NCBI RefSeq assembly: GCF_034351645.1
Contig: NZ_CP133782.1
Location: forward strand, 5,672,001-5,736,000
Direction of reading: 5' to 3'
Source of the DNA: Pseudomonas sp. DC1.2
GTDB lineage: Bacteria; Pseudomonadota; Gammaproteobacteria; Pseudomonadales; Pseudomonadaceae
DNA length: 64,000 nt
Under the pieces are notes generated by a model. The model did not search any database, had not been told where the DNA came from, and was given only the letters and a program-made list of their open reading frames with translations. The position numbers were made by a program, and so were the translations under genes. Below, piece by piece: positions 1 through 13,022 of this stretch; positions within the stretch are counted from its first letter, which is position 1, and each line of letters opens with the position of its first letter.

Positions 1-1893
1 TCGACCTTGCAGTTCGGGCAGGATCTGCATTTGGGTGCGGTTGCGCTCATTCCATGGTTTGAGCAGGAAGCCGCCAATCCCGGACTGCACGCCGTTATAG
101 CCGTTGATCTGGAAAGACGAGTAGTACTCCGGGAAGGCTTTGAAGATATCGATGAATTCGTCGGTGTAAGTATTCAAGTAATTCAGGTTGGTCGGTTGAG
201 GCGCACTGGACATCATGAAAATGATGCCTTGGTCTTCAGCCGGCGCCAGCTCCGACTTGGTGAATTTGAGGAACACTGGAATCAGGCACAACACAATCAC
301 GGCAAACACCAGTACCACTGGCCGTGTATTCAGAGTGCCATGCAGCAGCAGTTGATAACGCCGTTTGAGGCTTTCGAAAATACGGTCCAGTCGGTGGGCG
401 AGCCCCGAACTGCTGGCCTCGGGACGAAGCAACAGAGCGCACATCATCGGCGAAAGTGTCAACGCGACAATGCCGGAAATCACCACCGCACCGGCCAGAG
501 TCAAGGCGAATTCCTTGAACAGTGCACCGGTCAAACCATCCAGGAACCCAATTGGCGCATAGACCGCCGCCAAAGTGACGGTCATGGAAATCACCGGCAG
601 GGCAATTTCCCGCGCGCCCTCAAGCGCCGCGTCCATCGGTCCCTTGCCGTCCTCGATATGTCGGTGAATATTTTCGACCACGACGATCGCATCGTCTACC
701 ACCAGACCGATCGCCAGGACCATCGCCAATAGAGTCAGCAGGTTGATCGAGTACCCCATCATCTGCATGAAGAACATTACGCCAATCATCGACAGCGGAA
801 TGGTGACCACCGGGATCACTACCGACCTTAGCGCCCCCAAAAACAGGAACACCACCACGATCACGATCAGCACAGCTTCAAACAGCGTCTTCACCACTTC
901 ATTGATCGACGCCTGGATAAATTGTGTGGCGTCATAGGCTATATCTACCTTGAGGCTGGGCGGCAGTTGAGTCTCCAGCTCAGGCATGAGCTTGCGTACT
1001 TCCTTGATCACGTCCAGCGGGTTGGCGCTCGGTGTCGCCTTGATGGCGATGTAAACCGAAGGTGTGCCACCAAAGGAGCTGATGGCGTTGTAGTTTTCCG
1101 CACCCATTTCCACCCGCGCCACATCCCCCAATAACACTCGGCTATCGCCATCGGTTTTCAGGGTGATGGCAGCAAAGGCTTCGGCGGTTTTCAGATCGGT
1201 ACTGGCGTTAATACTGGTAACCACATATTCGCCTTTTACCTCACCGGCAGCCGAAAGGTAGTTGTATCGGCGTACCGCTGCGGTGACATCGTTGGCGCTC
1301 AAGCCGAACCCCGCAAGCTTCACCGGGTCGAGCCACAGGCGCATGGCAAATACCTGACTGCCGAGGATTTCGGCTTCGGCCATCCCAGGCAGCGTGGCGA
1401 GCTTGGGCTGGATTACCCGAGACAGGTAGTCGGTGATTTGCGAATTATTCAGTTGCCGGCTGGAAAAGCTGATGTACATGAGCGCCGAGGCGTCAGCGGC
1501 CTCCTTGCTCAGCACCGGGTCTTCGGCGTCCTGTGGCAGCTTGTTCTTGACCTCGTTAGCCTTGGCCAACAGTTCGGTAAACAGACGATCGCTGTTAGAC
1601 CCGATGCGTGCGTAGATCGAAATCACCGAAAAATTCTGGCGGCTGACCGACGTCATATAGTCAATGCCCTCGGCACTGGCCAGGCTTTGCTGCAACGGTT
1701 GGGTGATATAGCCCTGAATGGTTTCGGCATTCGCACCTGGGTATGCGGTAGTGACTGTGATCAGTGCGTTCTCCATCTTCGGGAATTGCCGCAACGCCAG
1801 CTTGCTGTAAGCCTGAAACCCCAGCAGCATGATCAACAGACTGACCACCACGGCCAACACCGGGCGGCGAATGAAAACATCGGTGAACTTCAT
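1..1893 (-). CDS. RND-family multidrug efflux permease (partial, N-terminal part)
   Basis: Inner-membrane proton/drug antiporter of the AcrB/MexB type, cut by the left window edge: about 631 of roughly 1,000-1,030 expected residues are visible. The start MKFTDVFIRRPVLAVVVS is the usual RND N-terminus leading into TM1. A TM4 motif GLVVDDAIVVVENIHRH near residue 400 carries the paired aspartates of the proton relay. Its ATG overlaps the TGA of the upstream membrane fusion gene by four bases (ATGA), so the two are translationally coupled. Substrate cannot be read from the sequence, and no outer-membrane partner is seen. Family call is firm; subfamily is not. Confidence 0.93.
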   Translation of the reverse strand, partial: MKFTDVFIRRPVLAVVVSLLIMLLGFQAYSKLALRQFPKMENALITVTTAYPGANAETIQGYITQPLQQSLASAEGIDYMTSVSRQNFSVISIYARIGSNSDRLFTELLAKANEVKNKLPQDAEDPVLSKEAADASALMYISFSSRQLNNSQITDYLSRVIQPKLATLPGMAEAEILGSQVFAMRLWLDPVKLAGFGLSANDVTAAVRRYNYLSAAGEVKGEYVVTSINASTDLKTAEAFAAITLKTDGDSRVLLGDVARVEMGAENYNAISSFGGTPSVYIAIKATPSANPLDVIKEVRKLMPELETQLPPSLKVDIAYDATQFIQASINEVVKTLFEAVLIVIVVVFLFLGALRSVVIPVVTIPLSMIGVMFFMQMMGYSINLLTLLAMVLAIGLVVDDAIVVVENIHRHIEDGKGPMDAALEGAREIALPVISMTVTLAAVYAPIGFLDGLTGALFKEFALTLAGAVVISGIVALTLSPMMCALLLRPEASSSGLAHRLDRIFESLKRRYQLLLHGTLNTRPVVLVFAVIVLCLIPVFLKFTKSELAPAEDQGIIFMMSSAPQPTNLNYLNTYTDEFIDIFKAFPEYYSSFQINGYNGVQSGIGGFLLKPWNERNRTQMQILPELQGR

Positions 1894-3050
1894 AGCGCAC
1901 CTTCAGCGAGGGCTGGTTGGTCAGGCACTGCTGGCTGATTCTTGTCAGGGCTGATGGCGACAGGGGTACCGGTTTCCAGCTTGAGCTGGCCGGCGCTGAC
2001 CACCTGATCACCATTTTTCAATCCGCGCGTTATCAGCACCAGACCGCCTCGCCGCTCGCCAGTTTCTACAAAACGCCGTTCGGCAATCAGGACGGGCTGG
2101 TTGTTGGCGTCTTTTTCCACGCTGCCGTCATCGGCTTTTTTCTGCGTGATGGCATATACCGAGTTGCCGTAAAGGGTGAACGTAATCGCGCTTTCCGGGA
2201 GCACAATCTCAACCTTCGGATCAGGCAGCAACACCCGCAGGCTGGCGAACATGCCGGGGAGCAGTTTGTTGTCAGGGTTGGCCAGGGTGGCGCGCACCAA
2301 CAAATTGCGCGTGGTGTTCTCAACCTTTGGGTTGATGGCACTGATGGTGCCGGGAAAGGCTTGTTGCGGGTAGGCCGACACCTCGACCTGCACGCCTTGC
2401 CCGATTGCCACTTTAGGCACCGATTGTTCGGGAAGATAAAAGTCGACGTAGAGGCTGCTCAGGTCCTGCAAAGTGGCAATCACAGTGCCGCTGGCCAGGT
2501 AATCGCCGACATCGACCTGACGAATACCGATGACACCGCCGAACGGCGCTAAAATGTGCTTCTTAGCCAGGGACGCCTTGAGTTGATTGACGGTGGCCAG
2601 GTTCTTTTGCAATTGGGCCGAGAGTCGATCGAACTCACCTTTGGAGATGGCCCGATCACCGACCAATTGGCTGCCGCGTCCAAAATCCAGCTTTGCCAGG
2701 CCAAGATCGGCCTGGGCGGTTTCGAGCAGCGCCTGCTCTACCGCGCTATCGAGCTGAACCAGAGGTTGTCCGACCTTCACCGTTTGCCCTGATTCGAACT
2801 GCACGTCCTTGACGGTGCCGGCAATCTCCAGGCTCAGGTTTACGCCGCGCAGTGCCTTGAGCGAGCCCACCGCCGGCAATCGCTCCTGCCATTTCTGCTC
2901 CTGCGCCGTCACCACGGCCACACTGACTGGAGGGCGGGGTGTGGAAAAACCCTGTACTTGCTGATAGATGGAATAAGCCTTGTAGCTCGCCAGCATCAAT
3001 ACAACACACAGAGAAACACCCAACATGATCATCATGCGACGGCGCAGCAT
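1890..3050 (-). CDS. RND efflux periplasmic adaptor (membrane fusion protein)
   Basis: 386-residue HlyD/AcrA-type adaptor that bridges the RND permease and an outer-membrane channel. An N-terminal membrane anchor (about residues 5-25) is followed by a lipoyl-like half (GTVKDVQFESGQTVKVGQPL), an alpha-helical hairpin rich in Gln/Leu/Ala (about 105-165), the second lipoyl half (ILAPFGGVIGIRQVDVGDYL), a beta-barrel domain and a C-terminal membrane-proximal domain. It is the first gene of a two-gene operon with the permease and overlaps it by ATGA. No regulator gene is adjacent, because the neighbouring DNA is the attTn7 island. Confidence 0.93.
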   Translation of the reverse strand: MLRRRMMIMLGVSLCVVLMLASYKAYSIYQQVQGFSTPRPPVSVAVVTAQEQKWQERLPAVGSLKALRGVNLSLEIAGTVKDVQFESGQTVKVGQPLVQLDSAVEQALLETAQADLGLAKLDFGRGSQLVGDRAISKGEFDRLSAQLQKNLATVNQLKASLAKKHILAPFGGVIGIRQVDVGDYLASGTVIATLQDLSSLYVDFYLPEQSVPKVAIGQGVQVEVSAYPQQAFPGTISAINPKVENTTRNLLVRATLANPDNKLLPGMFASLRVLLPDPKVEIVLPESAITFTLYGNSVYAITQKKADDGSVEKDANNQPVLIAERRFVETGERRGGLVLITRGLKNGDQVVSAGQLKLETGTPVAISPDKNQPAVPDQPALAEGAL

Positions 3051-3549
3051 ATTCCGATTCCTTGGAAAATTTGAACACCCGAAGTCAAAGCAACTTGCAC
3101 ATTACTCCAGGTAACAAAATGTTTCCAATAGCTAAAACCGACACGTCGGGACGTTGGATCACTAGACCCTCTACCTAGAGCCTCGCGCGAGATATTGAAA
3201 TTTTCTATGCAGCGGATTCTTTCGTGATCGCGCCGGGTAAAAGTGGTTTTTTCGGGTATGTGCTTGCTGGCAATCGCCGAGTCCAACGTTTGGTTCAAAA
3301 ACAGCTGAGATTATCCTGCCCAGAATTCGAACAGGCGTCCCACGTCTCCCTCAAGTAGACCCTCATGCTGCGCGTGCTCCACAGAGAGCCATAAGCGTGG
3401 CGTCCCGAGTGGCTGCTTATCGAGTTAGCTGGTTTACTCTGCCAAATCGGTAAGATGACCTTCGACGCGTATTCCGCCTCACTTTTGAATAGCATCTGAC
3501 TGTGCATCGATGCTCTACCAACCATCTCCCTGATGAAGGCTAGCGAGAA
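3051..3549. other. Gene-less left flank of the attTn7 island
   Basis: About 500 bases between the efflux operon and the small ORF behind tnsB. The frames open here (for example minus-strand frames at 3032-3298 and 3295-3525) have no recognisable domain and poor start contexts, so I do not call genes. The left end of the Tn7-like element should lie here, but I see no clear copy of the 20-bp repeats found beside glmS. The stretch GCTAAAACCGAC at 3131-3142 is only a weak match. The efflux operon promoter must lie near the low-coordinate end. Confidence 0.5.
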
Positions 3550-3717
3550 CTAGTTGGGAATGAAGATCTGCTTTAACATATTTGCCAATTGCTCAGAGGC
3601 AATCAAAGCATCAAGGGAATCAAGCGCAGCAACGGGGTCAGGCCTGACCGTGACCTTCGCGCGGATCTTCTCGATGTCCAGGCATTCACTGAACCGGTCA
3701 ACGATCACCTTGTTCAT
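3550..3717 (-). CDS. 55-residue ORF coupled to tnsB (unknown; possible tnsC remnant)
   Basis: The ATG overlaps the tnsB stop as ATGA, the same coupling seen between tnsA and tnsB, so this is the third cistron of the operon. The translated product begins MNKVIVDRFSECLDIEKIRA, ends LKQIFIPN and stops at TAG. It has no Walker motif or other domain I recognise. In Tn7 the gene in this place is tnsC, an AAA+ ATPase of about 555 residues. The ORF may be the start of a deleted tnsC or a distinct small protein. The same frame stays open beyond the TAG for about 75 codons (to 3295) without resembling an ATPase. Confidence 0.5.
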   Translation of the reverse strand: MNKVIVDRFSECLDIEKIRAKVTVRPDPVAALDSLDALIASEQLANMLKQIFIPN

Positions 3718-5723
3718 TTGGCCTTTCCTATGAAGCGCTCGTAATCTGCTGCATCACGCTGCGCTGACGCGTTTTTCGCAGGTCGTCCCGTTCTCCTATC
3801 TCCAGCATGCCAGTCCTCTCCGGTTTCCTGTTTGAACCGGTCCTTAAAATACTGCTGTACAGCAGGAATTTCATCATAAAGGGCAGCATCTCCTTTACGT
3901 CGCATTTGATCATACAACTGCAAGTCGCGAAGCGAGATGTCGACGGTCCCCTCCAGAGTTCGTTGAGAACTTACGAAATCCAATTCATAAAGCCTACCGC
4001 ATACCTCGATCCAAATATGGCGGACGCACATTATTAAGGTGTATGCAGTGGTTTTTATCACGCCATCTTTTGCAACTCGATCGAATACCCCTGTGGCGAC
4101 AAGCTCCGCAGATCTATATTTGCGACCGTAAAAATACACAGCGTCATTTCGAATTGCCGCCGGGCGCACAGCGAGAAACTCTCGAATCGCAGTGTGGAAC
4201 TGCATACTGTCCGCAGAGTTTCGACCTCGTTGATCCCAGTAGTTGAAAATTGCGAGGGGGGTGGGCTTGACTCCAGCGAGGACCAGCTCGTCGTCCAAGC
4301 GACCGCTGGCATCAGACGCATGGTTGTCCATAAGGACTTGGAGGATCTCCCGCTTAGCCATGTGTACGAAATTAAGCCGACTATGTACGAAGGTAGGCTG
4401 ATCCAGCGTCTTCTTGTCTCGTGGATGAGATGCCTCAACGGTGGCCTTGGACTGCCCTGAAAATACAGGGGTGGTTTCAAAGGTACCCAGCCAGTTGATC
4501 GCCGATTCCACGTCGAAGTTCGCTCCCGGTCCGCGATCAAATATGAGCCCGCGTGAAAGGCCCTCACTTGGCCATTCGTCGGGCCCGACAGTCAGCCCAA
4601 ATAACTCCGCGAATTTGACTTTATCGGCAGCCATTGAGAACAGGCACATTTTGTACGCATCCATAGTCTCCTTGCCTTCAGCAAAGCCGATCCCGATCAC
4701 GAGTCCTGAAAGGCAACAAACTCCTCGAACGACACAAAAACTATCAACCGCGCTCCCTTCCGAAATGCCCGAGAGCTTTTCAGATATGTAGTAGCCATCA
4801 AACTCTACACGTTGGTTTACGTTAAGTAGGCGGTCAGCAAAGCTTCCCTGGGAGCCGGTATTGGCGCGGGTTTTGTGCTCACCTCTGACGGCAATAGAGC
4901 GTTGTCTTGGGCTAAATCGATGATCTATTTGAGTTCTGACTTGAGAGCGTGTAGGAAACGGCCCGTTACTAGGATGGATGAACTCAATTTTGCCATTCCT
5001 TTTTACGGCGTTGCAGCCGAACTTCTTTGTTACGATTTCACGGTATATGTCGTTAGCTGTTTTATTCGGAGCCCTGAACTCGACATATCCTTCAATTATT
5101 TTTTCCTTCATTTCCGCGTCTGCCCGAAAGCCCCAATGCTTGCCCTTTGACGAAGGGCGTCCCAGCCTGCGGACGTATGAGGGATCATCACGATTCCAAC
5201 CTCCAATACGATGAAGGGGAGGCATCAAAGTCCATTTATTGCGGCCAAAAACGATGTATGTGTAGAACCAGAGCCGCAAGCGCGAAGTGTTCTGGATAGG
5301 CTTCAAGGCCTTGGCGTGAGCGTTAATGATGTTGTCCGGATTATCGCTTGCCAGAATCTCGCCTAGCCGGAGGACGAGTTCAGAAATGGCTGCGAAACGC
5401 CGGTTGACCTTCTGGTCGTAACTCTCATTAGTTGAAATACGCAGCACCTCTCGCTGAGCTACGGAGAGTCCATTGACCGGCTCAAGCCAGGGGGGGATTT
5501 TATCCGCCGGGCCGTCCTCCAAAATCAAGCCGGCTTCAAGCGCTTCCTCGAATTCAAACCTCGTTAAAGTGATCAGATGCGATCTGATCTTACGACCGTC
5601 GTCGCAGAAATTGATCAGTCGCACCCGATTGGTGCTCCCATCGCTGTGAAGGAAGTGATAGGTCTTGCCTTTCTCCAGGTAACAAAAACCCTCGGGAGCA
5701 ATAAGCCTGGCACCAGCCATCAT
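3714..5723 (-). CDS. tnsB: TnsB-like DDE transposase
   Basis: 669-residue transposase of the Tn7 TnsB / Mu MuA superfamily, which cuts the 3' ends of the element and joins them to target DNA. The catalytic triad is intact by eye: D309 (VEFDGYY), D396 (LIFDRGPGAN) and E430 (SKATVEASHPR). The spacings of 87 and 34 residues closely follow those of Tn7 TnsB. N-terminal residues about 1-290 would hold the helix-turn-helix DNA-binding domains. A basic C-terminal tail (about 625-669) is where TnsB contacts TnsC. It overlaps tnsA upstream (ATGA) and a 55-codon ORF downstream (ATGA). It is longer at the N-terminus than a bare rve domain and shows no frameshift, so it is probably functional as an enzyme. 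Confidence 0.9.
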   Translation of the reverse strand: MMAGARLIAPEGFCYLEKGKTYHFLHSDGSTNRVRLINFCDDGRKIRSHLITLTRFEFEEALEAGLILEDGPADKIPPWLEPVNGLSVAQREVLRISTNESYDQKVNRRFAAISELVLRLGEILASDNPDNIINAHAKALKPIQNTSRLRLWFYTYIVFGRNKWTLMPPLHRIGGWNRDDPSYVRRLGRPSSKGKHWGFRADAEMKEKIIEGYVEFRAPNKTANDIYREIVTKKFGCNAVKRNGKIEFIHPSNGPFPTRSQVRTQIDHRFSPRQRSIAVRGEHKTRANTGSQGSFADRLLNVNQRVEFDGYYISEKLSGISEGSAVDSFCVVRGVCCLSGLVIGIGFAEGKETMDAYKMCLFSMAADKVKFAELFGLTVGPDEWPSEGLSRGLIFDRGPGANFDVESAINWLGTFETTPVFSGQSKATVEASHPRDKKTLDQPTFVHSRLNFVHMAKREILQVLMDNHASDASGRLDDELVLAGVKPTPLAIFNYWDQRGRNSADSMQFHTAIREFLAVRPAAIRNDAVYFYGRKYRSAELVATGVFDRVAKDGVIKTTAYTLIMCVRHIWIEVCGRLYELDFVSSQRTLEGTVDISLRDLQLYDQMRRKGDAALYDEIPAVQQYFKDRFKQETGEDWHAGDRRTGRPAKNASAQRDAADYERFIGKAK

Positions 5724-6757
5724 GATTCTTTCTCCTGAAAGAGGGTCCCGTAGACCTTCAGGAGATCACCGTCATCTGTCGATAAAGGATGATCAATCAG
5801 GATTGGCTTGAAGAAATTGATGGGAAGCCTGCGCTCCCAGATGTCCTGGTAGATTTTTGAAATGAATTGATCACGTCGGCCCCAACGTTCTGCATATTTG
5901 ATCGCCAGATAGGCAACGGGCTCACCGACGCTAACAGCTTCTCGAACAGCATCACTGAAGTCATCCAGCAGGCTGCGTTCGAGCGTCAGTGGGACCTGGT
6001 GGGTGGTAAACAGTAAATCCAAATTAGCAATCACTGTGGGAGGGAGCTCTTCCAAAGACACTTGCACGGTCCGTATACCCGCGCTGGCGTAGTACATCTT
6101 TTCCAGCTTGGCTCGAAGAAATGCATGATCCCGATCCTTCTTCTGCTGCACCGGAGTCTTCGGGCTCGACAGCCTGCGTTCACCAAATGCGTCTTTACGA
6201 TCTTTTACTGTCCAGTTGACGGCATATGGAATGCCTTCCGCTCCTTTCAAATACAGCAACAGGTCGCCCTGATAAGGAAACGGAATTTTCGTCCGACGGC
6301 CGTCGGGCAAATCGACAGCGATTTCGTAATGCTTGAACCCAATCTCTTTTGCGACCTCGACCGTCCCTCTCACCGAAGGCAGAAAAATGCCTTTCGTTAA
6401 TGGGTGACCGCGCAATGGATTGCCGGATTTCAACGGCCATAGCATTTTTTGCTCGTGCAGATCGAACAAATCGGGATGGGAAAGTGCCAATTGGGTGAAC
6501 ACTTTCTCAGGGGTGGATAGCGCATGCACCTCGCGACCGAGCACGCGGCTATTGAGTCTGCAGATACGCGATCCCTTCGGAGCTTCGCGTGGCTTAGCTA
6601 GGGTCGAGGGGATGTACGTGTCACCCCAGTCAAAGCTGCTTTGGCGACTGAGGATTAATTTAATTCGTTCTTCCGGCGTCATATACGCATTCCATTTTCC
6701 GGGTGTTACGTCATCACATCGCTTGGGGATAAAACTCTTAAGCTCATGAAAACCCAT
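5720..6757 (-). CDS. tnsA: TnsA-like endonuclease
   Basis: 345-residue protein in the TnsA position, immediately upstream of and overlapping tnsB. TnsA is a restriction-enzyme-like nuclease that cuts the 5' ends of Tn7, giving cut-and-paste movement. Candidate active-site residues are E84 (STPEKVF) or E102 (DLHEQKML), D165 (PYQGDLLLYL) and K185 (NWTVKD), in the E...D...K order of the family. The C-terminal third would be the winged-helix domain that contacts TnsC. It is longer than Tn7 TnsA (273 residues). The annotated ATG has a weak ribosome binding site; an internal Met at residue 26 is an alternative start. The assignment rests on position and motif spacing. Confidence 0.82.
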   Translation of the reverse strand: MGFHELKSFIPKRCDDVTPGKWNAYMTPEERIKLILSRQSSFDWGDTYIPSTLAKPREAPKGSRICRLNSRVLGREVHALSTPEKVFTQLALSHPDLFDLHEQKMLWPLKSGNPLRGHPLTKGIFLPSVRGTVEVAKEIGFKHYEIAVDLPDGRRTKIPFPYQGDLLLYLKGAEGIPYAVNWTVKDRKDAFGERRLSSPKTPVQQKKDRDHAFLRAKLEKMYYASAGIRTVQVSLEELPPTVIANLDLLFTTHQVPLTLERSLLDDFSDAVREAVSVGEPVAYLAIKYAERWGRRDQFISKIYQDIWERRLPINFFKPILIDHPLSTDDGDLLKVYGTLFQEKES

Positions 6758-7318
6758 GTATTACGGGCTCGAACAAAGGTCGGTTCTGTGGATAACACCA
6801 ACTTTCCTGTGGACGAACGATACCGTGCGAGACTTGACGTCTCGCAGGCGGGAATAGAGAATGGAAAGGTCAGCGGTCTAACCTGACTTATCCACAGGGG
6901 CCCAAGTTGGCGCTTGGGTCCCCTGTCTCTTAGTTTCTCGATTAATATTATAGATACGCGATAAGTATTCCTTTGTCGGATGCTAGTATTACTTCCGCGG
7001 TTAGCGGGGAGTGCAATTTTAGTACGAGCTTCATTCAAAGAATTGACGAAGCATCGAAACCAAAAAACGAATTATGGTAACGCCTGAAATTGTTGCATGA
7101 CAATAAAAAGAATCATTATGTAACGCGTGTGGTGCTGCATTCCTTATGCTAAGCATGGACGGTTAATTCCATGTAATCACGATTGTAAAACCGCGCTCAC
7201 CGCACCTATAGCGTGCAATGGAATTAAAAGAGTCGGGTTTTATCTCTCATCGTGATTTATGGGGATCCAGTAACCTCGCCTATTCTAAAGCCCCATCCGA
7301 CTGATAGCTCTTTAGGTC
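6758..7318. promoter_or_regulatory. Divergent tnsA / tnsD control region
   Basis: 561 AT-rich bases between two divergent genes. Seen in it: two exact DnaA-box 9-mers (6787-6795 and 6888-6896); a hairpin with a 7-bp stem at 6827-6845 (GCGAGAC/GTCTCGC); a longer stem at 6897-6923 (GGGGCCCAAG pairing with CTTGGGTCCCC, one bulge); an interrupted palindrome CATGGA...TCCATG at 7154-7173; and GAATTAAAA at 7221-7229, the core of the 20-bp repeats found beside glmS. In Tn7, TnsB represses its own operon by binding end repeats next to tnsA, so these could be TnsB sites or operators. That function is inference. Confidence 0.45.
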
Positions 7319-8911
7319 ATGACTCGGCCAGACCCGATTTTGCGGTGGCTTGATGATGAGACATTTTTCAGCCTCTGCAGCCGCCAACACCAATTTCTGG
7401 GTCACCTGGACACTTCCAGCACGTTAGAGTGGCTGTTCGGTTCATCCCCGCGTTCTATCAGCCATGACTTTCCCAGTAACCTCAGCTCGCTAGACCTTCG
7501 GGTGACAGGCCTTTGGGGGGATTCCACATCGATTATCTATGAGCACACTATTCTCCCTCTGCTGATCCCGTTTCAGTGCAAAGATCGAATCAACAACGCT
7601 GTTCTAGCGATGAAAAGCCCATCAATTGGATCAATGAAGTACAGTCTCGGCCTTGTGACCGGGCGATTCGGTGCCGAGCATCCTTTGAAGGCTTGCACGT
7701 CTTGCATGCGAGAGGATCGTCTAACCCTTGGGGTCGCTTATTGGCACCTTACGCACCAATATCCAGGCGTAGTGTTGTGCCCCGTTCATGAAGTGCTTTT
7801 AAAGGATTGCGTCGAGAATCGGCAGTGGTCGGGGCGGTTTAAATGGATCCTTCCGAGCGAAGAGCTGTTTGAGTCGGACTCGCTACGCTATCCTAGCGAC
7901 GTAGCTAAAAATGCTCTTATAAAGATGAGTGAAGCAGTACTCGACGTTGTGTCTGTTGGTAAATCAAGGTGCTTCGACCCGGATATAGTCCAAAACGTGT
8001 ACAAGGATGCGCTCGATCTACTTGGAACAAGCTTCGATATGCGAGGCAGCATGGCAACCTCGTTCGCCGAATACGCATCGCTTATTCAACCATATTCGCC
8101 ATATACCTCCCTTCCAACTACGCCGTCAAAAGCGTCGGCTTTTATCGCACAAATGACGCGCAAAGCCCGTGGCAGATGCCATCCCCTAAAGCATTTGGTG
8201 CTGATCACTTGGCTATTTGGCCGGCTTGAGATCTTTATCGATCAATACGACATGTACAGTACAGCTAATTCATTAACTAAACCTAGCAAACTTTATTTCG
8301 CGGAAGAGGATCAACAGACTACTACCGATGAGATAAAAATTTCAGTTACTCGTAGGCCTAAAAAATTAAAACCTGAGTTACGTGCTGCAATCTTGGAAAG
8401 CCTGAAAAAAGGAGAAACAAAAGATAAAATTTGTTCTGAATTCAAAGTTTCAGTTAGCACCGTTAATCGACTTCTATCTTCAGATCGATTAGTAAAATCG
8501 TCAAGAAAAGAGAAGCAGTTAAGGGAAAATCTACGCACTTATCGTGCACAATGGGACCGTGCGATCAAAGAAAGCAACCAAATGTCGACAAACGACTTAC
8601 GATCAAGCATGCCTAATTTATATGCTTGGCTCTATCGAAATGATCGTGATTGGTTGCTAGAGCGTAATTCAGAATTGCCATGCGGACGGCTGGGAAATTA
8701 CTCATCCATCGACTGGGACAAGCGTGATGTATCACTCCAAGATCTGATACTTTCGAGGATGCATCAGGCGTATGGCGAATTCGGCCAACTGAGATTATCT
8801 AAAGCTGCGCTCTTCAACCTAGTTCCAAGTTTGTCCCGATCACTAGAAAAACGCACCCATTACCCTAAAACTCGATTTCTTCTTAGAGCACTATTACAAC
8901 AGAAGGAGTGA
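7319..8911 (+). CDS. tnsD: TnsD-like target selector (TniQ family, full length)
   Basis: 530 residues, close to the 508 of Tn7 TnsD, which binds the 3' end of glmS and directs insertion just downstream. The zinc site is C126-x2-C129-x24-C154-x2-H157 (ACTSC ... LCPVH), the same spacing as in Tn7 TnsD (C124, C127, C152, H155). A basic helix-turn-helix segment follows near residues 345-395 (KDKICSEFKVSVSTVNRLL), and a DNA-binding C-terminal region continues to the end, so the protein is not a short TniQ. It is transcribed divergently from tnsA rather than within the tnsABC operon as in Tn7. The start ATG has only a weak AGG upstream. Base composition is AT-richer than the host genes. Confidence 0.87.
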   Translation: MTRPDPILRWLDDETFFSLCSRQHQFLGHLDTSSTLEWLFGSSPRSISHDFPSNLSSLDLRVTGLWGDSTSIIYEHTILPLLIPFQCKDRINNAVLAMKSPSIGSMKYSLGLVTGRFGAEHPLKACTSCMREDRLTLGVAYWHLTHQYPGVVLCPVHEVLLKDCVENRQWSGRFKWILPSEELFESDSLRYPSDVAKNALIKMSEAVLDVVSVGKSRCFDPDIVQNVYKDALDLLGTSFDMRGSMATSFAEYASLIQPYSPYTSLPTTPSKASAFIAQMTRKARGRCHPLKHLVLITWLFGRLEIFIDQYDMYSTANSLTKPSKLYFAEEDQQTTTDEIKISVTRRPKKLKPELRAAILESLKKGETKDKICSEFKVSVSTVNRLLSSDRLVKSSRKEKQLRENLRTYRAQWDRAIKESNQMSTNDLRSSMPNLYAWLYRNDRDWLLERNSELPCGRLGNYSSIDWDKRDVSLQDLILSRMHQAYGEFGQLRLSKAALFNLVPSLSRSLEKRTHYPKTRFLLRALLQQKE

Positions 8912-9005
8912 CGGACGTCTCACCAGATTACGGAACTATCCGGAATCTTATCGCGGCCTAGCGCTATTAGGGACCTACTAAACGCTTAACAAAATAATTA
9001 GAACC

Positions 9006-10151
9006 CTATCCGTACACTTTTCTGGGTTGGATACTCGGAATAGCTGGGTGTGGTGGATCAGCCCATCTTGGAGTCCGTTGGACTCCGTTATCTTTTACAT
9101 CGCTAAAGGAACAGCATGGATAGGCTATCGAGATGCTCTTTCTAATCGAATCACCACGCCCAAACTCAAGAGAAAGAGGTGATGGATATGGGCAATACCA
9201 GTTGCCAACCCCAAGCGAATAGTTTTCGTCCACATAATTGGCTGACTCATGACCTCCGGCCCTGTACGTGGACCATAACGATGTTATATCTCGTATTTGA
9301 TCGCAAAGGTCAATTACATCCGCGACAAAATCCTGAAGACTATCATAGAGCATAGTTACAGAGTTGATAATACTGTCGAAATCGACACGTTCAAAATAGA
9401 ATGCAATATTACTTTCCGCATGCTCTTTCACCAGAGCCAGCTGATTACTTATAGTTCGTGACAGGCTATATAACTCTTCTTGGTTAAATGCATTCAAAAG
9501 TATCTCTGACGAATTTGAAAAAAACCTAACCTCCAGTGCTTCTAAAGCTGGTATTAATGATATGTGAAATCGGTATTTGTAAATTTCATCGACTAACCGT
9601 GAGCGCTTTAGCTCTGCAAGATCGTTGTTCACTCTTGAGGGGCTTTCGCTGAGATACTTTCCGCAACACCCCTCCCACATAACATTTCGACTGTGCCCGT
9701 GAGAGGTAAATGGCCTATCGCAGGCAGGACATACGGACTCTAAAATGACGTTATGAATTGCACATACGCCAACAGATTCTAGGGAAGGCCTGCGCCAATA
9801 TGAGAAACCAATTTTTTTGAAATCAGACTTCACGCATTCAGGACAGAAGGTCAATCGATTCGGAAAGGCAGGGTCGACATCTGCGAATTCGGCAATATAT
9901 TTACTGCCGGAATAGGCCATGTCCTGGGAGTTTTTGAACACCGAGAGCAACGGTTGATAGGTGTGGTTATGCAAAACGCGGTTGAAACCAGAGCATCCAT
10001 GCCAGCCCAGTAATGACGCAACGTTTCTAACGTTTTCGCTGGTGAGGCTTTTAGACGTATACCATTTTGGAGACCAGCCTTCGCCAAAAATAAAGATATT
10101 GCGTTCTATAAAGGAGCGTATTGTTTCATCTCGCTGAATGCGTAGAAGCAT
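9006..10151 (-). CDS. Second TniQ/TnsD-family protein
   Basis: 381-residue TniQ-domain protein. Zinc-binding residues are C103-x2-C106 (TFCPECV), C130-x2-H133 (VCAIH) and a further pair C141/C144 (CPACDRPF), with CC near a GKYL motif soon after. The C-terminal half is AT-rich and carries no helix-turn-helix that I recognise, so it is shorter than TnsD and resembles target-selector accessory proteins. It is convergent with the tnsD gene (94-base gap) and follows a 55-codon ORF on the same strand. Two TniQ proteins in one element usually serve different targets in Tn7-like families; that is family knowledge, not something seen here. No CRISPR-Cas genes accompany it. Confidence 0.8.
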   Translation of the reverse strand: MLLRIQRDETIRSFIERNIFIFGEGWSPKWYTSKSLTSENVRNVASLLGWHGCSGFNRVLHNHTYQPLLSVFKNSQDMAYSGSKYIAEFADVDPAFPNRLTFCPECVKSDFKKIGFSYWRRPSLESVGVCAIHNVILESVCPACDRPFTSHGHSRNVMWEGCCGKYLSESPSRVNNDLAELKRSRLVDEIYKYRFHISLIPALEALEVRFFSNSSEILLNAFNQEELYSLSRTISNQLALVKEHAESNIAFYFERVDFDSIINSVTMLYDSLQDFVADVIDLCDQIRDITSLWSTYRAGGHESANYVDENYSLGVGNWYCPYPSPLSLEFGRGDSIRKSISIAYPCCSFSDVKDNGVQRTPRWADPPHPAIPSIQPRKVYG

Positions 10152-10171
10152 TGTTAGAAGTCACTTTTATT

Positions 10172-10339
10172 TTATGCGCCAATTCGAAGAGCGTGAGGTA
10201 TATACGAGCTCAAGGCCGAAGGGTCAACAACGGCCTCGATATGATCCGATTCAATTACGTCGCGGCCTAAAATTGCCAATGATGCTGCATCAGGTGTTCC
10301 AGCTTGCGACGTGATGTCAAAGAGAGGAAGCGGCCGCAT
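10172..10339 (-). CDS. 55-residue ORF between the repeats and tniQ (unknown, perhaps a C-terminal remnant)
   Basis: Open from ATG 10339 to TAA 10172. The product begins MRPLPLFDITSQ and ends YIPHALRIGA, with ordinary amino-acid usage. The ATG lies inside the second 20-bp repeat and has no ribosome binding site. The stop is 20 bases upstream of the tniQ ATG. It may be the tail of a gene that once stood before tniQ (tnsC or another regulator in typical elements), cut when the right junction formed, or chance. No domain recognised. Confidence 0.4.
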   Translation of the reverse strand: MRPLPLFDITSQAGTPDAASLAILGRDVIESDHIEAVVDPSALSSYIPHALRIGA

Positions 10340-10378
10340 GGGACCGTTTTAATTCACATGCGACCGTTTTAATTCTCA
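10337..10378 (-). repeat. Two tandem 20-bp direct repeats beside attTn7 (candidate element right end)
   Basis: Read on the minus strand, TGAGAATTAAAACGGTCGCA (10378-10359) is followed at once by TGTGAATTAAAACGGTCCCA, 18 of 20 bases identical. The first begins 31 bases after the glmS stop codon, close to the point about 25 bases downstream where Tn7 elements insert. Tn7 right ends carry overlapping repeats of about 22 bp bound by TnsB, so a right end is the best guess. IS21-family elements also have multiple terminal repeats starting with TG, so an IS21 remnant is an alternative. A target duplication was not found. Confidence 0.55.
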
Positions 10379-10383
10379 AAAGC

Positions 10384-10445
10384 CAGAGGTTTCATCACCT
10401 GTGGATAACTATTCCACCGTCACTGACTTCGCCAAATTGCGCGGC
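10384..10445 (-). other. attTn7 region (3' end of glmS)
   Basis: The last codons of glmS (ending SVTVE-stop) are the DNA bound by TnsD in Tn7, and Tn7 inserts about 25 bases beyond the stop. Here that spacer is intact and also contains an exact TGTGGATAA box (10400-10408). The island with tnsAB and tnsD begins just after it. Assigned from family knowledge and position. Confidence 0.75.
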
Positions 10446-12244
10446 TGGTCAACGTCGGTGCCCTTGAGCACGGCCACGTAGTAAGACAGTAGTTGCAGCG
10501 GGATGGTGTAGAGGATTGGCGACAGGATGTCGTGGATGTGCGGCATCTGCACCACGTGAGTCCCTTCGCCATTGCTCATGCCGGCTTTTTCGTCGGCGAA
10601 GACGATCAGTTGACCGCCACGGGCGCGGACTTCCTGAAGGTTCGACTTCAACTTTTCCAGCAATTCGTTGTTCGGCGCCACGGTGACCACCGGCATGTCG
10701 TTATCCACAAGCGCTAACGGGCCGTGTTTCAGTTCGCCCGCCGGGTAGGCTTCGGCGTGGATATAGGAGATTTCCTTGAGTTTCAGAGCACCTTCCATCG
10801 CCACTGGGTACTGCGTGCCCCTGCCCAGGAACAGCGTGTGGTGCTTGTCGGCGAACAGCTCGGCGATTTTTTCCACAGTGCTGTCCATAGCCAACGCTTC
10901 ACCCAGACGGGTTGGCAGACGACGCAATTCTTCGACCAGGGTGGCTTCAACGCCTTTGGCCAACGTACCGCGAACCTGGCCAAGGGACAGGGTCAGCAGC
11001 AACAGGCCCACCAACTGCGTGGTGAAAGCTTTGGTGGAGGCCACGCCAATTTCGCGACCGGCCTGAGTCAGTAAGGTCAGGTCGGACTCACGTACCAGAG
11101 AGCTGATGCCGACGTTGCAGATCGCCAGGCTGGCCAGAAAACCGAGTTCCTTGGCATTGCGCAGGGCGGCCAGGGTGTCAGCGGTTTCACCGGACTGGGA
11201 AATCGTCACAAATAGGGTGTCGGGCTGCACCACCACTTTGCGGTAACGGAATTCGCTGGCGACTTCGACCTGGCAAGGAATGCCGGCCAGTTCTTCCAGC
11301 CAGTAGCGGGCGACCATACCGGCGTGATAACTGGTGCCGCAGGCGACGATTTGTACGTTGCGCACTTTGGCGAATAGCTCGGCAGCCTGTGGGCCGAAGG
11401 CTTGTACCAGCACCTGGTTCGGACTCAGGCGACCTTCAAGGGTGCGCTGCACCACGCTCGGTTGTTCGTGAATTTCCTTAAGCATGAAGTGGCGAAATGC
11501 GCCCTTGTCGGCGGCTTCGGCGCCATCGCGATACTGCACCGCTTCACGCTCGACGGCTTTGCCGTTGACATCCCAAACCTGGACGCTGTCGCGGCGAATT
11601 TCGGCAATATCGCCTTCTTCCATGTACATAAAGCGGTCTGTGACCTGACGCAAAGCCAGCTGGTCGGATGCGAGGAAGTTTTCCCCCAGGCCTAGACCAA
11701 TCACCAGTGGGCTGCCGCTGCGGGCGGCGACCAGACGGTCCGGCTGGTCGGCGCTGATAACGGCTAGACCGTATGCACCGTGCAGCTCTTTGACTGTTGC
11801 CTTGAGTGCCACAGTCAGGTCACGCAGATCCTTGAGCTTATGGGCCAGCAGGTGCGCGATGACTTCGGTGTCGGTGTCCGACGTAAACACGTACCCCTGC
11901 GCCTTCAACTGTTCACGCAGGGCTTCGTGGTTCTCGATGATACCGTTGTGTACAACAGCCAGATTCTGCCCGGAAAAATGCGGGTGAGCGTTGCGCTCGC
12001 AAGGAGCACCATGGGTGGCCCAGCGGGTGTGGGCAATGCCCAATCGACCGATCAGCGGCTCGCTGGCCAGGGCTTGTTCCAACTCACTGACTTTGCCCGG
12101 ACGACGCACCCGATCAAGGATCCCGTCGTTGGTGAAAACCGCCACACCGGCGCTGTCATAGCCGCGGTATTCCAGGCGCTTGAGGCCCTCGACCAAAATC
12201 GCGGTGATGTTACGTTCTGCAACTGCGCCAACAATTCCACACAT
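10409..12244 (-). CDS. glmS: Glutamine-fructose-6-phosphate aminotransferase (isomerizing)
   Basis: 611-residue cytosolic enzyme making glucosamine-6-phosphate from fructose-6-phosphate and glutamine, the first step to UDP-GlcNAc for peptidoglycan and LPS. The start MCGIVGAV places the nucleophilic cysteine at position 2, so the upstream in-frame ATG at 12265 is not used. An N-terminal class II glutaminase domain (about 1-240) is followed by two SIS domains, with SQSGETADT and the C-terminal [13 protein letters not shown]. The start lies one base after the glmR stop, so the genes are coupled. Its 3' end is the attTn7 target. No glmS ribozyme is present, as expected outside Gram-positive bacteria. 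Confidence 0.98.
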
Positions 12245-12245
12245 G

Positions 12246-13022
12246 CTATTTCTCCTGACTGACAACCGCGCAAATCAAGTTGATACCGCGGGCCTGAATC
12301 TGATCCCGTGCCTCCAGCGGCAGGCGATCATCGGTAATAAGGGTATGGACACTGCTCCAGGGCAGTTCCAGGTTAGGGATCTTGCGGCCAATCTTGTCGG
12401 CCTCCACCATCACGATCACTTCCCGGGCGACGTCGGCCATAACTCGGCTCAAACCCAGTAATTCGTTGAACGTGGTCGTACCACGCATCAGATCGATGCC
12501 ATCGGCACCGATGAACAATTGGTCAAAGTCGTAAGAGCGTAGTACCTGCTCCGCGACCTGCCCCTGGAAGGATTCGGAGTGCGGGTCCCAAGTGCCGCCG
12601 GTCATCAGCAACACTGGCTCGTGCTCGAGTTCGCTCAAGGCATTGGCCACATGCAGGGAATTAGTCATCACCACCAAACCGGGCTGCTGACCCAGCTCCG
12701 CGATCATCGCCGCCGTGGTGCTGCCGCTGTCGATAATAATCCGTGCATGCTCGCGAATCCGCGTCACCGCAGCGCGGGCGATTGCCTGCTTGTATTTGGA
12801 AACCGGTTGCCCGATGTCAGCCACCAACTCCTGAGGCATGGTGATTGCGCCTCCGTAGCGACGCAACAACAGTCCGTTGCTTTCCAGGGCTGCCAAATCC
12901 TTGCGAATCGTCACTTCCGAAGTTTCGAAGCGTTTGGCCAGGGCGTCCACAGTGACCTCCCCCAACTCGTTGAGCAAGGCGAGGATGTTGTGACGACGTT
13001 GGGGTGTATTGCGCTTCGACAT
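12246..13022 (-). CDS. glmR: DeoR-family regulator GlmR
   Basis: 258-residue DeoR-type transcription factor. An N-terminal helix-turn-helix ([20 protein letters not shown], then [13 protein letters not shown]) is followed by a sugar-phosphate-sensing domain with DSGSTTAAM and GADGID motifs. The start at [10 protein letters not shown] was chosen over an upstream ATG at 13064 because it matches the compact DeoR N-terminus. It sits between glmU and glmS. In P. aeruginosa the gene at this place is glmR, linked to cell-wall and antibiotic phenotypes. Its target here is inferred to be glmS. Confidence 0.9.

What the first reader, a model, noticed from the sequence alone, without database searches (positions are those of the whole stretch)
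3550..10378. Tn7-like island at attTn7 with tnsA, tnsB and two tniQ genes but no tnsC
Seen: coupled tnsA-tnsB with an intact D309/D396/E430 triad, a divergent full-length TnsD-like protein, and a second TniQ protein, all directly downstream of glmS. No ORF between glmS and the efflux operon has a Walker A motif. TnsC normally joins target selector to transposase. Either the element is a defective remnant that lost tnsC and its left end, or it relies on a tnsC elsewhere or a different partner.
Basis: partly seen in the sequence, partly recalled or inferred. Interest (0 to 1): 0.75.

Follow-up and report, generated by a model that had tools for sequence, protein, structure and literature searches.

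The report
Tn7-like island with truncated tnsC
This is a 30-kb jumping element parked beside the glmS gene of a Pseudomonas-like bacterium; it has both ends and most of its machinery but its tnsC gene is broken, so it is most likely a stranded copy of an otherwise complete element family rather than a transposon that works without tnsC.

Summary
The genes reported are real: tnsA, tnsB (triad D309/D396/E430), a TnsD and a second TniQ protein lie between glmS and an efflux operon. The missing tnsC is not an ancestral absence. Its start overlaps the end of tnsB; codons 1-87 remain (window 3457-3717) with an in-frame stop at codon 56, and the Walker part is replaced by cargo DNA. In related elements tnsC follows tnsB in 25 of 26 genomes fetched; in the 26th the contig ends there. 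A relative's TnsC finds no other copy in this single-contig genome. The left end is not lost: it lies 20 kb outside the window. The element is 30,421 bp (genome 5651965-5682385), with three left and two right end repeats, ending 23 nt from the glmS stop. The efflux operon and a natural-product-type cluster are its cargo. Best reading: a Tn7-like element recently immobilised by deletion inside tnsC. By-product: the flanking direct repeat of this clade is exactly 4 bp in 17 of 19 copies, whereas two Tn7 copies read the same way give 5 bp, the value a review states for all Tn7 relatives. That clade-level trait is more interesting than the missing tnsC.

The parts
3714..5723 (-). tnsB, 669 aa, DDE triad D309/D396/E430
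5720..6757 (-). tnsA, 345 aa, overlaps tnsB start
3457..3717 (-). tnsC remnant: codons 1-87 of about 449, open frame 55 codons, in-frame stop at codon 56, homology ends near 3457; start overlaps tnsB stop
3384..3460 (+). piece of transposon cargo, 90% identical to G328:C45:406286-406361, joined to the tnsC remnant by deletion; overlaps the remnant's homology by about 3 nt
1890..3257 (-). cargo: efflux membrane-fusion gene (1890-3050) and its upstream DNA; window 2900-3257 is 94% identical to G158, where it lies beside chemotaxis-like genes and not beside glmS
7319..8911 (+). tnsD, 530 aa, TniQ domain plus TnsD C-terminal domain
9006..10151 (-). tniQ2, 381 aa, glmS-proximal second TniQ protein
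10342..10375 (-). right-end repeats: two tandem GAATTAAAACGGTC sites, 20-bp period; element's last base is 10385
10386..10408 (.). 23 nt between element end and glmS stop codon (attTn7 position); begins with GAGG, which also ends the left flank at genome 5651964
10409..12265 (-). glmS, target gene

Best explanation
A Tn7-like cut-and-paste element of a Pseudomonas clade (here in order from glmS: right end, tniQ2, tnsD, tnsA-tnsB-tnsC, cargo, left end) inserted at attTn7. Shown here: both ends, the flanking direct repeat, the attTn7 position and the truncated tnsC. Inferred: as in Tn7, TnsD would bind the glmS 3' end and TnsC would connect it to the TnsAB transposase; a deletion joining tnsC codon 87 to cargo DNA, with a stop at codon 56, removed the ATPase. 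The element is therefore stranded with its cargo (efflux pump and biosynthetic-type cluster) at attTn7.
For: tnsC follows tnsB in 25 of 26 relatives fetched, and in the 26th the contig ends at tnsB. The remnant is collinear with it (66% over codons 1-90) and is the only TnsC match in the genome. The junction partner is cargo in the intact relative G328. Both ends are found: four exact repeat matches in the whole genome, two per end, in inverted orientation. Left-flank genes lie directly beside glmS in relatives G016 and G011. The flanks share GAGG. Over codons 1-87 the remnant is not evolving faster than tnsA/tnsB (pN 0.17 against 0.16-0.17), so the loss looks recent.
Against: tnsA, tnsB, tnsD and tniQ2 are all still open, which a working system would also show; a short time since the lesion explains it equally well. 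The 123-126 nt near 3258-3383 matched nothing in the 398 genus genomes searched. Immobility was not measured. The last 210 nt or so of the left flank do not align to the relatives.
Confidence: 0.93

Rival explanations
1. The element still moves without its own TnsC: TnsA+TnsB act with TnsD/TniQ2 directly, or the 55-87 aa TnsC N-terminus is enough.
For: tnsA, tnsB, tnsD and tniQ2 are intact and both ends are present. Gain-of-function Tn7 variants that bypass regulators are known (recalled, not looked up).
Against: No relative fetched lacks tnsC where sequence continues (25 of 25); the remnant lacks Walker A and everything after about codon 87; tnsA and tnsB show no unusual change against G219.
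Confidence: 0.03
2. The element is mobilised in trans by a TnsC of another element that enters the cell.
For: More than one element can occur in a genome (G192), so mixed occupancy happens.
Against: No second TnsC in this genome. It would be opportunistic, not a standing mechanism.
Confidence: 0.1
3. The genes belong to separate insertions and not to one element.
For: The efflux cluster lies elsewhere in G158, and about 126 nt at 3258-3383 are unmatched.
Against: Same core gene order in many relatives; one pair of matching inverted ends encloses all of it, with only four exact sites in the genome; left-flank genes are neighbours of glmS in relatives.
Confidence: 0.03
4. The tnsC lesion is a sequencing or assembly error.
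For: Only one assembly was seen.
Against: Two independent lesions, a stop and a junction to cargo DNA that a relative carries elsewhere in its element.
Confidence: 0.02

Closest known systems
Tn7 (E. coli; L243 and L244 as controls)
   Same: TnsA/TnsB heteromeric transposase, TnsD, glmS target with insertion about 25 nt past the stop (25 nt in L243; 23 nt here), termini starting TG
   Different: A second TniQ gene next to the right end; right end with 2 sites 20 bp apart and left end with 3 (site numbers of Tn7 itself are recalled, not checked); flanking repeat 4 bp here, 5 bp in both Tn7 copies; tnsC truncated in this copy; TnsA and TnsB match no Pfam family at E <= 1. tnsE was not searched for; none appeared among the 4 island and 17 cargo proteins scanned with Pfam
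Dual tniQ-tnsD Tn7-like elements, including type I-B1 CASTs (PMC10293859, PMC11406308; passages read)
   Same: Two TniQ-family genes, one a glmS-type TnsD
   Different: No CRISPR or Cas gene among the proteins scanned (no dedicated search); tniQ2 sits at the glmS-proximal end and its partner is unknown

Membership tests
Tn7-like transposon (working definition of PMC11406308: TnsB and TnsC plus TnsA and/or TniQ) | TnsB DDE transposase | tested here: met
Tn7-like transposon (working definition of PMC11406308: TnsB and TnsC plus TnsA and/or TniQ) | TnsC ATPase, intact, in this copy | tested here: not met
   codons 1-87 only, with a stop
Tn7-like transposon (working definition of PMC11406308: TnsB and TnsC plus TnsA and/or TniQ) | TnsC ATPase, in the clade | tested here: met
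   25 of 26 relatives fetched, the 26th cut by its contig end; Walker A seen; the profile's best PDB hits are VchTnsC (E 0.0085) and, third, Tn7 TnsC (E 0.029), which is weak
Tn7-like transposon (working definition of PMC11406308: TnsB and TnsC plus TnsA and/or TniQ) | TnsA endonuclease and TniQ/TnsD proteins | tested here: met
Tn7-like transposon (working definition of PMC11406308: TnsB and TnsC plus TnsA and/or TniQ) | Inverted ends with repeated TnsB-type sites | tested here: met
   TnsB binding itself not tested
Tn7-like transposon (working definition of PMC11406308: TnsB and TnsC plus TnsA and/or TniQ) | Insertion downstream of glmS (Tn7's own site) | tested here: met
   element end 23 nt from the stop codon
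[quoted passage not shown]
   4 bp in 17 of 19 copies, 5 bp in 1, none in 1; two Tn7 controls 5 bp
Tn7-like transposon (working definition of PMC11406308: TnsB and TnsC plus TnsA and/or TniQ) | Transposition activity | not testable with these tools
   needs bench work
CRISPR-associated transposon | Cas effector genes or array in the element | not tested
   no dedicated search; none among the 4 island and 17 cargo proteins scanned with Pfam

The most novel reading that the evidence does not exclude
The broken copy belongs to a Pseudomonas clade of mostly glmS-targeting Tn7-like elements whose TnsAB transposase joins target DNA with a 4-bp and not a 5-bp stagger. The clade carries a fast-diverging second TniQ protein at the glmS-proximal end, with an unknown second target or partner.
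Probability: 0.75. Interest if true: 0.5.

Novelty: new variant of a known kind. Interest (0 to 1): 0.38.

Why it matters
It removes a tempting but wrong example of TnsC-independent targeting and shows how a Tn7-like element gets stranded with its cargo. The borders set here reveal a clade whose 4-bp flanking repeat contradicts the printed rule of 5 bp for all Tn7 relatives; since the stagger reflects the spacing of the two strand-transfer sites (established for such transposases, recalled), this is directly testable. It also shows that TnsA and TnsB of a clade found in about 7% of the sampled genomes of the genus (28 of 398) can escape the usual Pfam models.

Tried and rejected
TnsC elsewhere: own-genome searches with PF13401 (47 matches, first 8 as loci, general AAA proteins, not examined one by one), PF05621 (3 matches, none in the island) and a relative's TnsC (only the remnant). 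TnsC-less family: rejected by the neighbourhoods. Left end just after tnsC, as in G214 and G280: not the case in this copy. Efflux operon as native flank: rejected, because the stretch left of the element carries the genes that lie by glmS in relatives. 5-bp repeat with termini shifted by one base: of the 17 copies 8 match on one shift and 7 on the other, so neither fits. Plasmid search with window 3250-3480: no match. Genome-contig scan with TnsB: 90 pattern matches, no relative confirmed. ncbifam: nothing useful. Of the 27 other genomes with strong TnsB, G076 (partial hit on a short contig) was not fetched. Papers: PMC10293859, PMC11406308 and PMC8649781 by passages only; all others by search listing only; Aprile et al. 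2021 on a copper Tn7-like element of P. syringae was seen only as a reference and is not held, so whether it is of this clade is open.

Full report
Setting. The window is genome 5672001-5736000 of a single-contig genome of 5,824,620 bases. Where the 120 listed protein relatives carry a source name, it is Pseudomonas or Metapseudomonas; the genome itself is unnamed.

The proteins. TnsA and TnsB match no Pfam family at E <= 1, but family profiles recover Tn7 TnsA (E 4e-7) and Tn7 TnsB (E 3e-10). The TnsA model (mean pLDDT 85) matches 1t0f (E 7e-10). The TnsB triad D309/D396/E430 is invariant in 21 sequences. TnsD has PF15978 (E 3e-32) and PF06527. The second TniQ protein scores below the PF06527 cut-off, yet its profile and its model (mean pLDDT 77) match Tn7 TnsD (E 9e-6; E 8e-5).

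tnsC. TnsB was sought in 398 genomes of the genus: 37 have a match, 28 of them with E below 1e-90, this genome included. I fetched 26 of the other 27 (G076 was left out). In 25 of 26 a tnsC follows tnsB; in the 26th (G180) the contig ends at tnsB. 24 of these 25 tnsC genes code for 437-450 aa with GLAGVGKS or a close variant; that of the distant G387 codes for 980 aa. In the window the same position holds codons 1-87, with a stop at codon 56, 66% identical over codons 1-90 to the tnsC of G219. Homology ends near 3457, and 3384-3460 is 90% identical to a stretch 16 kb from tnsB in the intact element of G328, inside its ends. So a deletion, with about 3 nt of overlap, joined tnsC to cargo. Over codons 1-87 the remnant differs from G219 no more at nonsynonymous sites (pN 0.17) than tnsB (0.17) or tnsA (0.16), which suggests a recent loss; synonymous sites are near saturation, so no date can be given. 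Own-genome search finds no second TnsC, and none of 130 frames of 30 aa or more between the efflux operon and glmS has a Walker A pattern.

Borders. Next to glmS two tandem repeats about 20 bp apart were visible in all 15 loci printed. In this genome only four places match GAATTAAAACNGTCNC exactly: 5651975 and 5652087 (+), and 5682340 and 5682360 (-); 13 others have two mismatches, against 15 matches of up to two mismatches for the reversed control pattern. With the TG termini the element runs from 5651965 to 5682385, 30,421 bp, ending at window 10385, 23 nt from the glmS stop. The left end has a third, degenerate site between its two exact ones. Left-end sites 111-112 bp apart (outer to inner) and right-end sites 20 bp apart recur in the copies where both were matched. 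Left of the element lie genes for a LysR-like, a GST-like and a 676-aa protein (names read from sequence, no family search). Of five relatives examined, four carry this stretch near glmS, and in G016 and G011 the match reaches within 12 and 72 nt of the glmS match; in G019 and G021 other DNA lies between, and G005 lacks it.

Cargo. Between left end and tnsC lie an efflux operon (membrane-fusion gene; AcrB-type pump) and a natural-product-type cluster: of 17 proteins scanned, 13 match Pfam at E <= 0.01 (acyl carrier protein, ketosynthase, dehydratase-like, short-chain reductase, two AMP-binding, two ATP-grasp, radical SAM, dioxygenase, N-acetyltransferase, MFS and DUF6622); the dehydratase and one AMP-binding match lie below their cut-offs. 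Window 2900-3257 is 94% identical to G158, where the pump and the neighbouring cluster genes sit beside chemotaxis-like genes and not beside glmS.

How it works. By homology to Tn7 (PMC11406308, passages): TnsD binds glmS, TnsC couples target to transposase, TnsAB cuts and joins. Here the coupling part is gone, so the likeliest state is immobile. Decay is common in the clade: 32 of 398 genomes have a tniQ2 match with E below 1e-19, and 8 of them have no TnsB match. All 8 keep tniQ2 beside glmS, in 4 of them with stops or split frames (G022, G250, G094, G341), and G086 also keeps a tnsC tail. In all 27 fetched loci, apart from the window, where both tniQ2 and glmS are in view, tniQ2 is the first core gene next to glmS; 13 of these loci come from a fetch made largely because of tniQ2 hits.

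Flanking repeat. For 19 copies with both ends read, the left flank's last 4 bases equal the right flank's first 4 in 17; one (G192b) has 5; one (G192a) has none; mispaired flanks match in 3 of 342. Shifting one terminus by a base makes 8 or 7 of the 17 into 5-bp repeats, so a uniform 5-bp reading fails. In G180, G331 and G272 the two ends lie on different contigs, so their pairing is assumed; the G214 copy has no glmS in the stretches fetched around its ends. G002's left end and G057's right end start TA and not TG. Two Tn7 copies in E. coli read the same way give 5 bp and a length of 14,067 each (the second needed one mismatch in the end motif). A review passage states 5 bp for Tn7 and all relatives (PMC11406308). 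Two searches of the paper library for a 4-bp duplication with TnsB or Tn7-like listed no paper that describes it by title or abstract (most subscription papers are not held, and these were listings only).

Known. Dual tniQ-tnsD loci are known (1,048 loci, PMC10293859, passage), and 96% of surveyed Tn7-like elements have a tnsC (PMC8649781, passage). So the finding as given is a defective copy of a known kind; the 4-bp repeat is the part that may be new.

Noticed in passing
window 10386-10389 and genome 5651961-5651964; 19 copies in related genomes: Flanking direct repeat of the clade is 4 bp (17 of 19 copies), not the 5 bp of Tn7.
   Followed up: yes
genome 5652185-5675257 (L159 and window 1-3257): Cargo is a natural-product-type cluster with an AcrB-type efflux pump; a piece 94% identical (window 2900-3257), with the pump and neighbouring cluster genes, lies beside chemotaxis-like genes in G158.
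   Followed up: partly
window 9006-10151; loci L035-L105: tniQ2 differs most of the core genes (35% identity to G219 where tnsB has 71%) and sits next to glmS in all 27 loci with both in view; second target or partner unknown.
   Followed up: partly
L046, L047, L048, L097: The tnsA-tnsB-tnsC block faces glmS in the opposite orientation while tniQ2 keeps its place.
   Followed up: no
L042 and L100 (G214): A copy of the clade with both ends and a 4-bp repeat but no glmS in the 20-kb stretches fetched at each end, so perhaps another target.
   Followed up: no
L054 (G387): A distant relative has a 980-aa TnsC-like protein, twice the usual length.
   Followed up: no
L097, L098 (G192): Two neighbouring elements with tniQ2 genes about 45 kb apart; tnsB of one is interrupted.
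   Followed up: no
window 7221-7234 (+): A two-mismatch copy of the end repeat about 100 bp upstream of tnsD; possibly regulatory, possibly chance.
   Followed up: no
P0014 and other TnsB relatives: Many of the 120 listed relatives carry precomputed Pfam PF27135, but the Pfam copy used here returned no family for P0014 or for the window TnsB.
   Followed up: no
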